Below are positions 31,888 through 38,543 of a stretch of 64,000 nucleotides of DNA, piece after piece. The notes under the pieces are model-generated. The model worked only from the letters and a program-made list of their open reading frames with translations, was not told the origin of the DNA and did no database searches. Each line of letters starts with the position of its first letter. Positions within the stretch are counted from its first letter, which is position 1. The position numbers and the translations under genes were made by a program. Location: positions 310,001 through 374,000 of the forward strand of contig NZ_JACVPW010000002.1 in the NCBI RefSeq assembly GCF_018881715.1, read 5' to 3'. The stretch comes from Polynucleobacter parvulilacunae (GTDB taxonomy: Bacteria; Pseudomonadota; Gammaproteobacteria; Burkholderiales; Burkholderiaceae).

Positions 31888-33501
31888 ATGATTATGAATC
31901 CACATAAATATCTTCTCGCTTCAATACTGGGATTCATGTCAGCTGCACACGTCTATGGATATTCAAACCCCCTCGAAGACCCTTTACTCAATCCCTGGTT
32001 AACACCATTAAATCAATGCGCCCAAGAAAATGGTCAGTATCAACTTGATATGGATATGGGATTTTTAAATACAGATTACTTTTGCCGTATAGATCAAAAG
32101 CAAGGCGTCATTTTTCTAACAAAAGATAAACAAGCAACTAACCGAGATGCTTCACGTTTAGCTCTGAAGAAGATCGATTCCTGCCAATTAATCAATTCAG
32201 GAAGAATCTTAGTCGGAGCAAGTAGAGACTCTGTTGCGGATCTGCAGAATCTTTTGAAAAATAAACAACGAAATTTCAATATTCAAATCGGGAAGCTAAA
32301 TGGCCTCTGGAATCCACCAGAAACCCATGCCAAGGTTTTCCAACTTGGCAATGGCGTCGATCAGTTCTTTACTGTTCACGGCTCCTTAAACCTACAAACG
32401 GTTGGCTTAACTTGCAAAGCTAACAATGCCCTTCGATTTACCGAAGTAAACCCAGTGATTTATGGCTACTTTAAAGATCTTGGAGATGCAGTTGAAGCCA
32501 ATACCGGCAAGGGCAAATTCGCTGGTGCTGGCACTGAAAACTCGAGCGGCACTAATTTACCCACAGCCACCATTGGCAACTACCAAGTGCAGTTTTATGC
32601 AGGAAAAGGTATGGGCTTTGTAGGCAATAGCGTTGTACAGAAACCGTTTTGGCAAGACAATATTAACCCGCCCATCACAAACCAACACGCACCAGGTGTT
32701 CTGAATTGGTATGACAACATCATTTTTGATGCAGCCAAACAATTGCGACAGGGCAGAGATGTCAATATTGATTTACTTATTTTTGAGATCGGACAGGAGA
32801 ACGCCTTTGTTAGCAATCTTTGGGATTTTGTCCAAAATGGATTTGAGAATGGCAAACCCGAAGATAAAACCTCTCAAGATATTGTTGCGCAACCCTATAT
32901 TGGCAAGTTAAACGTACGTTTCTTATGGCAATTCCAGAGCGACCAGAAAGAGTCTGGAAAAACATATGCCCTGCTAAATGGTCCAAAGCAAATTGGGGGA
33001 GCCTCAAAGAATGCTCAAGCTGATTCCTATGCCTTAGAGAGCGCACGTATCTGGCCTATATTGAATCCCTCAGGAGTTGCGATCAACCCAGGCACACCTA
33101 GAGATATGCACAATAAGCTTGCTATCCTGAACGTTCAAGGCCATGAGGAGGAGCGCAAGATTTACATCACTTCTTCCAATATGGATACCCCAAATATTGG
33201 CAGTGGAAAACTTTGGCAAGCTGGCACCATTATTTCGGCGAAGCCTGGTTCCTACATATGGAGTGGAGACAATATCCACAAGCCTAATCTTTGGAATGCC
33301 TACAAGAACTATTTTGATCTACTCTGGAGTAATCGTGAAGGCCAACCCAATGCAGGGCAAATTGGCTTCTCTAAGCTTATTAATGATCAGAGAGCAAACG
33401 GGGTCGTCAACTGGATTGAGACAGTGCCACCAAATTCAGATATTAAATACAGGCCAAAAGAAGGTATTGATGCATTTTTCTTTCCAATACCTTTTGATTG
33501 A
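31888..33501 (+). CDS. Secreted phospholipase-D-like superfamily protein
   Basis: Signal peptide; two degenerate HKD half-sites: HAKVFQLGNGVDQFFTVHGSLN and HNKLAILN...IYITSSNMD. Confidence 0.65.
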   Translation: MIMNPHKYLLASILGFMSAAHVYGYSNPLEDPLLNPWLTPLNQCAQENGQYQLDMDMGFLNTDYFCRIDQKQGVIFLTKDKQATNRDASRLALKKIDSCQLINSGRILVGASRDSVADLQNLLKNKQRNFNIQIGKLNGLWNPPETHAKVFQLGNGVDQFFTVHGSLNLQTVGLTCKANNALRFTEVNPVIYGYFKDLGDAVEANTGKGKFAGAGTENSSGTNLPTATIGNYQVQFYAGKGMGFVGNSVVQKPFWQDNINPPITNQHAPGVLNWYDNIIFDAAKQLRQGRDVNIDLLIFEIGQENAFVSNLWDFVQNGFENGKPEDKTSQDIVAQPYIGKLNVRFLWQFQSDQKESGKTYALLNGPKQIGGASKNAQADSYALESARIWPILNPSGVAINPGTPRDMHNKLAILNVQGHEEERKIYITSSNMDTPNIGSGKLWQAGTIISAKPGSYIWSGDNIHKPNLWNAYKNYFDLLWSNREGQPNAGQIGFSKLINDQRANGVVNWIETVPPNSDIKYRPKEGIDAFFFPIPFD

Positions 33502-33610: not shown

Positions 33611-33946
33611 CTAGTGAAGCGCTCCTGCTTTGGATGCAGATGAAGAAGCTCGCTCACCAATCAGTAATTCATGAACAATATGGGTTGATTCAAATGCCTG
33701 CATTAACCATTGCGGGATATTTTCGCAGATACAGTAAACGCCTCTGCGGCCACCGGCCTTCAAGCAAATTAATTTTGAGGAGGCCAGCTTTTTAAGATGG
33801 AAATCCAACGTTCCAGAATCAAATCCGAATTCATCAATCATGTCTTTGGGTCTAGCCCCTAATTTTCCAGATTGATAGATAAAGTCAAAGACCTTGAATC
33901 TTGTCTCGTTGCCTAAAGCCTCAAATACTGAAAGAGAATTTCTCAT
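33611..33946 (-). CDS. ArsR-like winged-helix regulator
   Basis: FEALGNETRFKVFDFIYQ...LDFHLKKLASSKLI. Confidence 0.82.
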   Translation of the reverse strand: MRNSLSVFEALGNETRFKVFDFIYQSGKLGARPKDMIDEFGFDSGTLDFHLKKLASSKLICLKAGGRRGVYCICENIPQWLMQAFESTHIVHELLIGERASSSASKAGALH

Positions 33947-33964: not shown

Positions 33965-34303
33965 TTAATTGGACGTGCCAGTTGTATAGTCAAGAATGGG
34001 ATGGGATTGCCCGTGAATATCTCGCATCGCAACACTATGGATTGATTCTTCTACCTCAAGCGCTACTTCGCTGACTTCGTACTTGATGAGTCGAATTTCC
34101 TCAGCTAGGCTTTCAGATTTCGGATCCATGTGGGTAGGAATCTGATGTGGATTTTTGGAATTAGCCTGAACAGAGTCATCAATGTTTAACTGGATCTTGG
34201 TACCTGCAAGAGCGGCTGAACCACAAACCAGCAGAGAGAATGTCAACAAAGTAGCTAGTGGATGACGACCGCAAAATGAAGTAAAGGACATAAGGACCTC
34301 CAA
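33965..34303 (-). CDS. Hypothetical exported protein (start possibly 34291)
   Basis: Signal peptide MSFTSFCGRHPLATLLTFSLLVCGSAALAG. Confidence 0.6.
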   Translation of the reverse strand: MEVLMSFTSFCGRHPLATLLTFSLLVCGSAALAGTKIQLNIDDSVQANSKNPHQIPTHMDPKSESLAEEIRLIKYEVSEVALEVEESIHSVAMRDIHGQSHPILDYTTGTSN

Positions 34304-34348
34304 AAAATGAACTTAGGTCATCCTAAGTACATCCTCATTTGAGAGCCA

Positions 34349-34364
34349 TAGCACTTTAGCTCTA
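34349..34364 (-). promoter_or_regulatory. 16-bp motif copy A (TAGAGCTAAAGTGCTA)
   Basis: Upstream of 33965..34303; one of five copies in 3.8 kb. Confidence 0.65.
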
Positions 34365-34461
34365 GCCACGTATTTTTCATGATTTTTTCGAAGACCCCAA
34401 TGGTGCGAATTTAGAAAAATCCATTAAATAGGTCGTTTAAATAAAGGTTGAGGCCAAAATA

Positions 34462-34475
34462 TTGATCTTGGTCAA
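34462..34475. promoter_or_regulatory. FNR/Crp-family-like box TTGATCTTGGTCAA
   Basis: 9/10 match to TTGAT-N4-ATCAA, upstream of response regulator. Confidence 0.45.
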
Positions 34476-34484
34476 TATTAGCCC

Positions 34485-34500
34485 TAGAGCTAAAGTACTA
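34485..34500 (+). promoter_or_regulatory. 16-bp motif copy B (TAGAGCTAAAGTACTA)
   Basis: 75 bp upstream of response regulator start. Confidence 0.65.
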
Positions 34501-34575
34501 GTAGAAATCGTGATACAAATGACATAATTATTCCTCCCAATATAAGCAATAAATAAAGTAAAAATAAGGACTTAC

Positions 34576-35169
34576 ATGCATCCCGTGTCATTGTTGATCG
34601 TCGACGATCATCCGGTCTACAGGGATGCCCTACATCAGTTCCTTACTCGAAAATTCTTTTCCTCCGGCACTCAAGTATTTTCAGCAAACTCGATTAAAGA
34701 GGGTCTCAATATAGTCCGCTCAAAAAAGTCCAAATGGATCATTCTTTTGGACCTATTAATCCCAGATTCAGAAAACCAACTATTCGGAATCCAAGAGTTT
34801 AAGAAGTGTGAAGACATCATAGCAATTGCTGCGATTTCAGGTCTGGAACAAGAAAGTTTAGAAAAAGAGTGTCTTGATGCTGGTTGTAGCATCTTTATTC
34901 CGAAAAGTAGTGACACCTCTTATATTTATCAAAGTCTGTGCAGCTTGATGGGATTGAGCCCAAACGAGGCTGAACTGACCCAGCTTACCGATAGACAAAA
35001 ACAAATTCTGAGCCACATTTCTAATGGTGACTCCAATAAGATGATCGCCTACTCCCTCAACATCAGTGAGCAGACTGTAAAAGTGCACTTAGGTGAGATC
35101 TTTAAGAAAATCAAAGTATTTAACCGTACACAAGCTGTTATTAAAGCCAAAGAGAACGGGTGGGTATAA
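34576..35169 (+). CDS. LuxR/NarL-type response regulator
   Basis: LLIVDDHPVYRDAL receiver; LTDRQKQILSHISNGDSNKMIAYSLNISEQTVKVHLGEIFKKI HTH. Confidence 0.93.
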   Translation: MHPVSLLIVDDHPVYRDALHQFLTRKFFSSGTQVFSANSIKEGLNIVRSKKSKWIILLDLLIPDSENQLFGIQEFKKCEDIIAIAAISGLEQESLEKECLDAGCSIFIPKSSDTSYIYQSLCSLMGLSPNEAELTQLTDRQKQILSHISNGDSNKMIAYSLNISEQTVKVHLGEIFKKIKVFNRTQAVIKAKENGWV

Positions 35170-35172
35170 AAC

Positions 35173-36930
35173 ATGGATACCTTCTCAATAGAAAACAACA
35201 ACGAATTGCTGCTGGAAGAAAAGTATCAATTTCTTGAAACAGCCTCTAAAGCCAATACGGCTGGAACAGTTATTGGACCCCTGCTCACTGGTATCTTAGT
35301 ATTTCAGGAGGCGCCACTTGGTCCGCTTTCTATCTGGCTAGGAACCATGTTGGTCTGCGTAATTTTCAGGGCCTATATGGTCTTGACTAGGAACAAAGAT
35401 CAACAGCTATCGGTCAAACGAAAAATATTCAACCTGAATCTTGGTGTATTTACTGTTACTGCATGTTGGGGCTTAGGCTGGCTCATCGTTGCACCAACCC
35501 TTCCCTTTAACTTACAGTGCTTATATCTATTGATGAGCTCAACGGCTGTGTTTGTAGGTCTTTATGGCTATTCTATTCATCGCTCAACCTTTATCTGCTT
35601 TGCGCTACCAATCTTTGCAGGTCAGTTTATTTCCAGCCTTACACCTCCGCTCATGTTTCCATGGCCGATTCTCATGGGTGAATTTGCATTCTCGTTATAC
35701 GCAATAAAGATGTCATCATATTTTTCTAGCTCATGGGTTAAAACAGTGAGCCTACAAATTCAAAATCAAACCCTCAATAAAGAACTAGAGCTTGAGCGCA
35801 ATACTGCAATTGCGGCAAATATCGCTAAATCAAAATTTATTGCGACAGCCAGCCATGACCTCAGGCAGCCACTTCATGCCGTCAATATTTATCTAGATCT
35901 ATTTGAGCCAAATAAACTCAACCACAAGGAAAAGATTAACTTTCTGCAAATTAGAAAAAGTATCCAAACCTTAAACTCTATGTTTAAGTCCCTTCTAGAC
36001 TTGAGCAAATTAGATGCGGGTGCATCCGATAAGTTAGCAAAGCCTTTTGAGCTCATAGAACTAATTGGCTTCCTATCCAATACATTCACCCCAATCGCAA
36101 CAAATAAAAACCTAGTGCTCCAGTTTGAATTCTTGAATATGGGAATTAATGGCGATAAGTTTCTACTGCAGCAGCTGCTTGGGAACTTGATATCTAATGC
36201 AATTCAATACACTGCATCAGGAACGGTGGAAGTCAAACTTAACTCTCATAATGGTTGCTTGCATATATCTATAAAAGATACGGGCTATGGAATTGATTCA
36301 GCCCTGCTGGATAAGATTTTTGATGAATTCTTTAGGGTGGACAGCACCCGAAACATGCATGATGGGCTTGGGTTGGGTCTCTCGATTGTCAAGAGGCTTT
36401 GCAAAACGTCTAATACAGACCTCGCTGTTGAATCTATTTTGGGATCCGGAACTACTTTCAAGTTGCAAACCAAATACTCCACAACTGCATTACCAGATGA
36501 GGTAGAAACACCAGCAACCCACTCACCCGAACACAAGCTAGGATCACAAGACTTTCTTTTGGAGGCCAAAAATATTGCAGTCTTTGAGGATGACCACACT
36601 ATTTTTGAAGCTTATAAGCAAGCGTTGACACAAAATGGGTTCAACGTCCTTTCGCTCTCAGAGGATAGCCGGGACTTGGCAAATCAATTAGCCAATATTA
36701 ATCATATTGATTGCATCCTCAGTGACTATCGCCTAGAAACTACTACTGGAGATCTCATCATTCAACAGCTACGTGATAGTTTTGGCATAGACATTCCATC
36801 CATCATCATTACTGCAGACACCTCTCCCCAGCATATCCAGTTATTCAAAGGTCTGAATATTGAGGTGTTGTATAAGCCGATCGGCTATAGCGATATCGTT
36901 GATGCAATTAAATTACTACTACAAAAATAA
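35173..36930 (+). CDS. Membrane hybrid sensor histidine kinase with C-terminal receiver
   Basis: Multiple TM; ATASHDLRQPLHA H-box; GLGLGLSIVKRLC; receiver IDCILSDYRLE. Confidence 0.93.
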   Translation: MDTFSIENNNELLLEEKYQFLETASKANTAGTVIGPLLTGILVFQEAPLGPLSIWLGTMLVCVIFRAYMVLTRNKDQQLSVKRKIFNLNLGVFTVTACWGLGWLIVAPTLPFNLQCLYLLMSSTAVFVGLYGYSIHRSTFICFALPIFAGQFISSLTPPLMFPWPILMGEFAFSLYAIKMSSYFSSSWVKTVSLQIQNQTLNKELELERNTAIAANIAKSKFIATASHDLRQPLHAVNIYLDLFEPNKLNHKEKINFLQIRKSIQTLNSMFKSLLDLSKLDAGASDKLAKPFELIELIGFLSNTFTPIATNKNLVLQFEFLNMGINGDKFLLQQLLGNLISNAIQYTASGTVEVKLNSHNGCLHISIKDTGYGIDSALLDKIFDEFFRVDSTRNMHDGLGLGLSIVKRLCKTSNTDLAVESILGSGTTFKLQTKYSTTALPDEVETPATHSPEHKLGSQDFLLEAKNIAVFEDDHTIFEAYKQALTQNGFNVLSLSEDSRDLANQLANINHIDCILSDYRLETTTGDLIIQQLRDSFGIDIPSIIITADTSPQHIQLFKGLNIEVLYKPIGYSDIVDAIKLLLQK

Positions 36931-36950
36931 CATCATTTACAGGAACACAA

Positions 36951-37658
36951 ATGAGCGCATTTAAATACATTTGCATTGCAAGCATTATTACAATTACAGT
37001 TTCTACATATGCTTATGCAGAGACCAAAGCAAATCCGTGGTCTGGCGCATACGGGCAAGTGGGCTTAATTGGCTACGAGAGCTACATACCCAAAGGTGCG
37101 AGTGGGACAACCACAACCGCAAGTGGGATTACGTTTCCGAATTCCTCAACCGCAAATCATGCCAATGGACCTGCAGCCAATATCGGAATCGGCTACAACT
37201 TTGATCTTGGCAGTAGCTATTTATTAGGTATCGGCGCAGCTTTGTACCTAGGTCACTCTAGATCTGCAAGCTCTACACTTGTTACAACTACGCCCGCTGG
37301 GGCATCCGTGAAAACTGGCACATATGATGCATCTAACATCTTCAGCTTTTCCCTACTTCCAGGCTATATGATTAATGAGACACACTTAGTATATGCAAAG
37401 GTAGGGTACGCTGGGTCAACAATCAACGCCAATTCTTCAGGAAATTACCCTCAGCAATCCAATAGGGTCAATGGAACTGTCTATGGCATTGGCTACAAGC
37501 AATTTATATCTGGCTCTATCTACGCCTTTGGCGAGGGGAACTACGCCGTGAATAGAGCAAAGGCGGTCACCGTTCTAACAGATAGTGGTGCAACCGTAAA
37601 ATCCACTGCAGATGCAACTGGTTACGACTTTGTCTTTGGTGTTGGCTATCACTTCTAA
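36951..37658 (+). CDS. Outer-membrane beta-barrel protein
   Basis: Signal peptide; WSGAYGQVGLIGY...NIGIGYNFDLG...VFGVGYHF terminal Phe. Confidence 0.83.
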   Translation: MSAFKYICIASIITITVSTYAYAETKANPWSGAYGQVGLIGYESYIPKGASGTTTTASGITFPNSSTANHANGPAANIGIGYNFDLGSSYLLGIGAALYLGHSRSASSTLVTTTPAGASVKTGTYDASNIFSFSLLPGYMINETHLVYAKVGYAGSTINANSSGNYPQQSNRVNGTVYGIGYKQFISGSIYAFGEGNYAVNRAKAVTVLTDSGATVKSTADATGYDFVFGVGYHF

Positions 37659-37686
37659 AAGCTACGCCCAAAAATGAATCAAAAAA

Positions 37687-37708
37687 AACCACCCCTAGGG
37701 GTGGTATT
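37687..37708 (+). terminator. Terminator-like hairpin after beta-barrel gene
   Basis: aaccacccctaggggtggtatt. Confidence 0.6.
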
Positions 37709-37809
37709 AATATTCAAAAATCTGTCAAGGAAATTTGAATAGTTAGGAACCTCCTTTATAACCTACCAAATCTAGAAGTGGTAAATTTTAATCAAGATTA
37801 TCTGACGTC

Positions 37810-37825
37810 TAGAGCTAAAGTATTA
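37810..37825 (+). promoter_or_regulatory. 16-bp motif copy C (TAGAGCTAAAGTATTA)
   Basis: Overlaps stop codon of 53-aa ORF. Confidence 0.55.
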
Positions 37826-37984
37826 GTCCTGAGCAATCCCAGCATTACCCATTGCATCTGAGTGAATACTTTGCGCTGCATGAGCTTGCTCTTCTGCGTT
37901 AAATTTATTGAATGCCATTGCACTTGCCAAACCCATCAAGAATGCACATATCGCTACGATTAAATTTGTACTGAGTTTTCCCAC
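37823..37984 (-). CDS. Small exported peptide (53 aa, GTG start), not in supplied ORF track
   Basis: Hand translation (M)GKLSTNLIVAICAFLMGLASAMAFNKFNAEEQAHAAQSIHSDAMGNAGIAQD; ggggaag upstream of GTG. Confidence 0.55.
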   Translation of the reverse strand: MGKLSTNLIVAICAFLMGLASAMAFNKFNAEEQAHAAQSIHSDAMGNAGIAQD

Positions 37985-38082
37985 TTTTCTTCCCCATATA
38001 AATTAAAAAATAAAAGCTAATCTCTTTAGCCGGGAGAATAGTAATTCATAAAACAGAAAAGATTTGTGAAATTTATACTTGG

Positions 38083-38098
38083 TAGAGCTAAAGTATTA
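38083..38098 (+). promoter_or_regulatory. 16-bp motif copy D (TAGAGCTAAAGTATTA)
   Basis: Between divergent 53-aa ORF and 38199 gene. Confidence 0.65.
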
Positions 38099-38117
38099 GC
38101 TCAATTCATCAACGCAA

Positions 38118-38133
38118 TAGAGCTAAAGTTTTA
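38118..38133 (+). promoter_or_regulatory. 16-bp motif copy E (TAGAGCTAAAGTTTTA)
   Basis: 35 bp from copy D. Confidence 0.6.
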
Positions 38134-38198: not shown

Positions 38199-38543
38199 AT
38201 GAAGAAAATCTTTTTAGTGATCACCCTATTTGCTCTAATGAATCAAGCGCAGGCCTATGAACCGAGTGAATGCGACGGTATGTCGATCTGGAAAAAATCC
38301 ATAAAAAATTCTCCGGACATCATGACGCGTACTTGCAATATATTTGGGATGAACTACATTGAGGTTAAGAGTCAACTAAAGGAAAATCGCTGTATTGTTG
38401 TAACCAATACAAAAACAGGTGATCAATGGAAGTATTTCTTCTTGCACAAGCAATCCATCAAGTCATTGGGAAGTCCTCTCCTTGATCCAGAAGATTTCAC
38501 TGTTGCATCAAATAGCGTAAAAGAGGGTCGTTGCAACTCATAA
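38199..38543 (+). CDS. Hypothetical secreted protein
   Basis: Signal peptide MKKIFLVITLFALMNQAQA. Confidence 0.65.
   Translation: MKKIFLVITLFALMNQAQAYEPSECDGMSIWKKSIKNSPDIMTRTCNIFGMNYIEVKSQLKENRCIVVTNTKTGDQWKYFFLHKQSIKSLGSPLLDPEDFTVASNSVKEGRCNS

What the first reader, a model, noticed from the sequence alone, without database searches (positions are those of the whole stretch)
34349..38133. Five copies of a 16-bp 7-2-7 motif around a LuxR-type two-component locus: a putative regulon
TAGAGCTAAAGTGCTA (34349-, minus), TAGAGCTAAAGTACTA (34485), TAGAGCTAAAGTATTA (37810, 38083) and TAGAGCTAAAGTTTTA (38118) are all in non-coding DNA or at a gene edge. I noticed no full-length copy elsewhere in the window. 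The motif reads TAGAGCT-AA-AGTACTA, and the right heptamer reverse-complements to TAGTACT, giving an inverted 7-2-7 arrangement like that established for NarL-type regulators. The sites flank the RR-HK-beta-barrel operon, the divergent exported protein gene, and the divergent 53-aa ORF / 38199 pair. This suggests autoregulation plus a local set of secreted/outer-membrane targets.
Basis: partly seen in the sequence, partly recalled or inferred. Interest (0 to 1): 0.75.

Follow-up and report, generated by a model that had tools for sequence, protein, structure and literature searches.

The report
Local two-component regulon with hidden sRNA
In some freshwater Polynucleobacter bacteria, a sensor-regulator gene pair very probably controls its own genes and a few neighbouring small secreted-protein genes through a repeated 16-letter DNA switch, and one of the five switches appears to control a previously undescribed small RNA that is probably also controlled by the oxygen sensor FNR.

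Summary
Observation confirmed: five exact copies of TAGAGCTAAAGTNNTA lie as stated, the only exact copies in this 2.07-Mb Polynucleobacter genome. The regulon reading is mostly supported. The response regulator (RR) occurs in 18 of 186 genus genomes; TAGARCTAAAGTNNTA occurs 60 times in those 18 and 10 times in the other 168 (4 of them in remnants of this locus). Sites lie at fixed distances from a -10 box: 22 nt (RR), 23 nt (exported protein), 22-23 nt (gene right of 38118), an activator position near -42.5. RRs only ~40% identical, in Comamonadaceae, carry a related 7-2-7 element at the same distance. Corrections: site 37810 is not a promoter site of the 53-aa gene. On the minus strand it lies upstream of an FNR-type box, TATAAA and a conserved two-hairpin RNA (37681-37745) absent from Rfam, most likely a small RNA. 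The RR promoter has its own FNR-type box (34462-34475), and the genome encodes FNR. In relatives, target genes move with their sites, and the gene behind 38118 is exchanged. The RR is NarL-like, but its heptamer (TAGNRCT) is not NarL's. Binding, signal and sRNA targets are untested.

The parts
34349..34364 (-). 7-2-7 site for the exported-protein gene; centred about -43.5
   Evidence: Exact motif; 23 nt to a TANNAT -10 in 16/16 loci
34320..34325 (-). -10 box TAGGAT of the exported-protein gene
   Evidence: Conserved across loci
33965..34291 (-). Exported 112-aa-class protein (exp112); likely ATG start near 34291 rather than TTG 34303
   Evidence: Orthologs align from about residue 4-5; no Pfam or NCBIfam family
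33611..33946 (-). ArsR-like HTH protein, neighbour; tested and rejected as the binder
34462..34475 (+). FNR-type box TTGATCTTGGTCAA in the RR promoter
   Evidence: At most 2 mismatches in 15/17 orthologous promoters, 9 nt from the site in 14 of them
34485..34500 (+). 7-2-7 site of the RR-HK-OMP operon, centred about -42.5
34523..34528 (+). -10 box CATAAT of the RR operon (extended TG)
   Evidence: 22 nt after the site in 16/17 loci; position
34576..35169 (+). NarL/FixJ-type response regulator
   Evidence: Response_reg plus GerE; closest solved structure NarL 1A04
35173..36930 (+). Hybrid histidine kinase; hydrophobic multi-TM N-terminus of unknown family, HisKA, HATPase_c, REC
36951..37658 (+). 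Outer-membrane beta-barrel protein
   Evidence: PF13505
37681..37745 (-). Putative sRNA: stem-loop plus Rho-independent terminator; probable 5' end near 37748
   Evidence: not in Rfam
37755..37760 (-). -10 box TATAAA of the sRNA
37782..37795 (-). FNR-type box of the sRNA promoter at about -41.5 (degenerate in this genome, perfect in three relatives)
37810..37825 (+). Site A: overlaps the stop codon of the 53-aa ORF; upstream site of the sRNA promoter (about -70)
37823..37984 (-). 53-aa small exported or membrane protein (p53), GTG start
   Evidence: Detected in related loci by tblastn and as an ORF in L158; relocated with its own site in two genomes
38083..38098 (+). Site B: 39 nt from the p53 -10 (about -60)
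   Evidence: Offset 39 in 10/12 loci; 28 (minus about one helical turn) in the other two
38118..38133 (+). Site C: 22-23 nt upstream of the -10 of the rightward gene
   Evidence: 11/11 loci
38199..38543 (+). 114-aa exported protein (p114); replaced by another small gene in some relatives

Best explanation
This is a compact two-component regulon. The hybrid kinase (35173-36930) controls, directly or through its own receiver domain, phosphorylation of the NarL/FixJ-type regulator (34576-35169). The regulator binds TAGNRCT-AA-AGYNCTA as a dimer and activates. At its own operon (RR-HK-OMP), at the divergent exported-protein gene and at the rightward gene of the right-hand cluster it binds near -42.5, overlapping the -35 region (class II). 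At the 53-aa protein gene it binds near -60, and at the leftward sRNA near -70 (class I-like). FNR probably co-controls the RR operon (box at about -66.5) and the sRNA (box at about -41.5), so output would reflect both oxygen and the kinase's unknown signal. Shown here: sites, geometry, conservation, co-occurrence, the RNA's conserved structure, and an FNR-type gene in the genome. Inferred: who binds, activation rather than repression, transcription starts, FNR's role and that the RNA is made.
For: RR and motif co-occur: 17/18 RR-positive against 8/168 RR-negative genomes have an exact copy, and 60 against 10 copies in all (Fisher 3.7e-17; genomes are related, so the p-value overstates independence). 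Site to -10 distance is constant: 22 nt in RR (16/17), 23 in exp112 (16/16), 22-23 for the C gene (11/11), 39 for p53 (10/12), with two 28s that keep helical phase. Comamonadaceae RRs of about 40% identity have TAMAACC-TA-AGTTTYA or a variant 22-23 nt from a -10 in 7 loci. Sites are conservation islands: identity 0.86-0.93 against 0.32-0.39 in adjacent spacers. Targets keep sites when relocated: p53 in G110/G111, the whole A-sRNA-p53-B-C unit in G033. FNR-type boxes with at most 1 mismatch in 14/17 RR promoters, where shuffles give 0.6% each. FNR-like protein with CxxC-x5-C and an IETVSR helix. NarL is the closest solved structure and binds 7-2-7 sites (PMC4549865).
Against: No binding or expression data. 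RR-positive genomes share ancestry, so co-occurrence counts are not independent. A NarL DNA-contact lysine (K192, from memory) is Gly here, so specificity cannot be read off. The -10 distances were picked as best-scoring offsets, although the peaks agree across separate gene groups. FNR boxes are missing from G110/G111, and the sRNA box is degenerate in this genome and in G137. The G034 promoter does not align well with the rest.
Confidence: 0.8

Rival explanations
1. Another regulator, for example the neighbouring ArsR-like protein (33611-33946), binds the repeated site, and the two-component system is only a target.
For: The gene is adjacent to exp112 in most loci. Palindromic sites also suit ArsR-type dimers.
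Against: Nine RR-negative genomes carry a close ArsR homolog (E<=1e-19) but no site (G209, G141, G189, G130, G197, G073, G031, G018, G122), and G190 has five sites without a close ArsR copy. Comamonadaceae loci with a related site have no detectable copy of this ArsR-like gene.
Confidence: 0.05
2. The RR binds but represses, or the sites have mixed roles.
For: Sites near -42 overlap the -35 region, where binding can also block polymerase.
Against: The fixed 22-23 nt spacing and the helical-phase shift (39 to 28) fit activation better. The -42.5 position resembles NarL-activated napF and yeaR (PMC4549865). No -35 consensus was looked for systematically, so this is not excluded.
Confidence: 0.12
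3. The hairpin region is only the terminator and 3' end of the 53-aa mRNA, not a separate sRNA.
For: It lies downstream of p53 on the same strand and ends in a strong terminator.
Against: In G110 and G111 p53 is not found at this place (a homolog lies at the other end of the locus), yet the RNA with its upstream site stays after the OMP gene. It has its own -10, and in most relatives an FNR box 22 nt from it. Its identity (0.84) exceeds that of p53 codons (0.64).
Confidence: 0.2
4. The 16-mers are mobile or REP-like repeats without a regulatory role.
For: Several copies sit close together and the unit occurs at different genomic places.
Against: Only five exact copies in the genome, all clustered here, with fixed promoter spacing and linkage to the RR.
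Confidence: 0.03

Closest known systems
NarX-NarL / NarQ-NarP regulons (E. coli, Neisseria)
   Same: GerE-type RR; inverted 7-2-7 heptamers; the gonococcal aniA promoter needs both FNR and NarP (PMC1802743)
   Different: Heptamer TAGNRCT instead of NarL's TACYNMT (from memory); hybrid kinase with an unrelated membrane input; local regulon of small exported proteins and an RNA
NahK/ErcS-ErdR type hybrid-kinase systems
   Same: Hybrid kinase core is the best NCBIfam hit (near_NosP_CTERM, 238 bits) and ErdR is the top-listed RR model
   Different: Far below curated cut-offs (400 and 390 bits); different sensor end
FNR-dependent sRNAs (E. coli FnrS, Neisseria AniS; from memory)
   Same: Short RNA with terminator and an FNR box at about -41.5; in gonococcus the most FNR-dependent transcript, NMB1205, of unknown function, has its FNR box listed at 41.5 (PMC1802743; position convention of that table)
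   Different: No sequence family in Rfam; also has an RR site upstream; limited to a few Polynucleobacter

Membership tests
NarL/FixJ response regulator | Receiver plus GerE/LuxR HTH domains | tested here: met
   PF00072 and PF00196 above cut-off
NarL/FixJ response regulator | Phospho-acceptor Asp in the receiver | tested here: met
   IILLDLLIP aligns with NarL LILLDLNMP
NarL/FixJ response regulator | Inverted 7-2-7 DNA site | tested here: met
   74 sites, TAGARCT-AA-AGTNYTA; binding itself not tested
NarL itself | NarL equivalog score and TACYNMT heptamer | tested here: not met
   79 bits against cut-off 250; heptamer TAGNRCT
NahK/ErcS hybrid kinase | Curated NCBIfam cut-off | tested here: not met
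   238.5 against 400 bits
Hybrid histidine kinase | HisKA, HATPase_c and REC in one chain | tested here: met
FNR-controlled promoter | TTGATNNNNATCAA-like box at an activating position | tested here: met
   sRNA promoter box (up to 2 mismatches) 22 nt from TATAAA in 9 of 14 loci and 21 nt in this genome; three are perfect; this genome's sRNA box has 2 mismatches
FNR-controlled promoter | FNR with Fe-S cysteines in the genome | tested here: met
   L170 ORF with CSVCVLGQFC and IETVSR helix
FNR-controlled promoter | FNR binding and anaerobic induction | not testable with these tools
   Needs ChIP or reporter assays
Bacterial trans-acting sRNA | Own promoter, conserved structure, intrinsic terminator | tested here: met
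   3 pairs with two-sided change, all in the terminator stem; fold z -3.45
Bacterial trans-acting sRNA | Base-pairs with targets | tested here: inconclusive
   No signal against OMP, RR, p53 or exp112 leaders; genome-wide targets not tested
Bacterial trans-acting sRNA | The RNA is transcribed | not testable with these tools
   No expression data available
Known Rfam RNA family | Score above gathering threshold | tested here: not met
   No match over threshold

The most novel reading that the evidence does not exclude
A portable regulatory module: an oxygen-gated two-component system whose output is mainly very small exported proteins plus a new sRNA family, with sites that travel with their genes and a promoter slot (site C) behind which unrelated small genes are exchanged between species.
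Probability: 0.45. Interest if true: 0.6.

Novelty: new member of a known kind. Interest (0 to 1): 0.5.

Why it matters
It gives an uncharacterised family of two-component systems in abundant freshwater bacteria a concrete, testable DNA code and target list. It adds an sRNA candidate that links this system to oxygen sensing, and it shows cis-sites following small-protein genes through rearrangement.

Tried and rejected
ArsR-like neighbour as the binder: rejected by its distribution. Rfam identity for the RNA: none. Local sRNA targets by duplex energy (OMP, RR, p53 and exp112 leaders): mean z about 0, nothing. Weaker R1 hits in G011, G019, G005 and a second G115 place: 38-51 bits, no FNR box in the fetched stretches, treated as terminator-like chance matches. 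Sensor domain of the kinase: no Pfam family even at E 10 except a 0.57 hit to DUF2070. Structure prediction was not run, because a fold match for a short membrane domain would not have settled the signal.

Full report
Observation. The five 16-mers are exactly where stated. In the whole 2.07-Mb genome, pattern TAGAGCTAAAGTNNTA with one mismatch allowed finds these five plus one coding-region copy at C2:413740 (context). The clustering is therefore real and specific. Loci from genome contigs with near-identical RRs are labelled Polynucleobacter.

Neighbourhood. Pfam gives Response_reg plus GerE for 34576-35169; HisKA, HATPase_c and REC for 35173-36930; and OMP_b-brl for 36951-37658. The 112-aa, 53-aa and 114-aa proteins match no family. 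NarL (1A04) is the closest solved structure to the RR. The kinase's N-terminal part is conserved across 21 relatives but unnamed.

Co-occurrence. The RR ortholog is in 18 of 186 genus genomes. The relaxed motif TAGARCTAAAGTNNTA occurs 60 times in those 18 and 10 times in the other 168. The reversed-pattern control gives about 0.15 hits per genome, so the RR-negative background is at or below chance. The one RR-positive genome without an exact copy (G196) has two near-variants on a short contig. Among RR-negative genomes, G086 has no RR and has frameshifted HK and OMP remnants, and in G139 the contig starts inside the kinase. Fisher p is 3.7e-17, with the caveat of shared ancestry.

Promoter geometry. 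A -10 matrix scan gives one dominant offset per gene group: RR 22 nt (CATAAT or AATAAT in 15 of 17), exp112 23 nt (TAGGAT in most), rightward gene 22-23 nt (TATTCT or TATGAT in most), p53 39 nt. Two p53 promoters have offset 28, a loss of about one helical turn. With -10 at -12 to -7, 22 nt places the site centre at -42.5.

Wider conservation. RRs of about 40% identity in Limnohabitans and other Comamonadaceae or Burkholderiales have TAMAACCTAAGTTTYA (six loci) or TAGAACCAAAGTTAAG (one locus), each 22-23 nt before a -10 ahead of the RR. This is the best evidence that the RR acts at its own promoter. None of the other local genes is detected there.

FNR input. TTGATCTTGGTCAA (34462-34475) or a variant lies beside the RR site in 15 of 17 promoters. 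The genome has TTGATNNNNRTCAA 44 times, counting both strands, against 4 for the reversed control, and encodes an FNR-type protein near a ccoG-like gene (gene naming by eye).

Hidden RNA. Leftwards from site A come an FNR-type box, 22 nt (21 in this genome), TATAAA, and then a 65-nt element ending in a GC-rich hairpin and T-tract. It folds with z -3.45. The terminator stem shows three pairs with two-sided changes; the first stem shows only one-sided changes. A covariance model finds it strongly in 14 genomes: 12 RR-positive plus G086 and G139, the two with locus remnants. These 14 are also the sequences the model was built from, so the informative result is that no further genome has a strong match. 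Identity is 0.84 against 0.21-0.37 in the spacers beside it. In G194, which lacks site A, the element is degenerate. In G110 and G111 it stays after the OMP gene although p53 is no longer beside it. An sRNA is therefore the preferred reading, but no transcript has been seen.

Changing targets. Site C precedes p114 in some genomes and an unrelated short gene (NHPR-HEL pattern by eye) in G119, G097, G139 and G033. G033 carries the A-sRNA-p53-B-C unit away from the RR locus. G097, G176 and G034 have an unlinked site before a 46-51-aa small protein, and G115 before a lipoprotein gene.

Rivals. The ArsR-like neighbour does not track the motif. Repression, a p53 3' end and inert repeats are weighed in the Rival explanations section.

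Known systems. NarL recognises 7-2-7 sites such as TACCCCTAAAGGGGTA, and napF and yeaR have sites at similar positions (PMC4549865). FNR with a NarP-type RR at one promoter is known in gonococcus (PMC1802743). The held literature gave no paper on a Polynucleobacter RR regulon; the structured RNAs described earlier for this genus in PMC8632094 sit at other genes. Hence a new member of a known kind, with a probable new sRNA family.

Noticed in passing
G086 C1:1167284-1167609 (L163): Decaying copy of the locus: RR absent, kinase start and OMP frameshifted, yet sRNA, p53 and all three sites intact.
   Followed up: partly
L160, L161, L162, L159: Nearly identical upstream stretches around an unlinked site in four genomes, before a small protein in three and a lipoprotein gene in G115; looks like recent transfer.
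   Followed up: partly
L165 (G123) and L167 (G004): RR-negative genomes with one exact site upstream of, respectively, a relative of the G115 lipoprotein and a 47-aa small exported protein; relic, chance or another regulator.
   Followed up: no
L187 (G011 C3:983-1352): An exp112-like gene followed by an R1-like terminator element and what looks like a second exp112-like gene.
   Followed up: no
L125 9708-10355 (G176): Stop codon inside the first 216 codons of the kinase by this frame; frameshift or assembly error.
   Followed up: no
window 31888-33501: 537-aa exported protein with no Pfam hit; an HNK motif by eye suggests a phospholipase-D-like fold.
   Followed up: no
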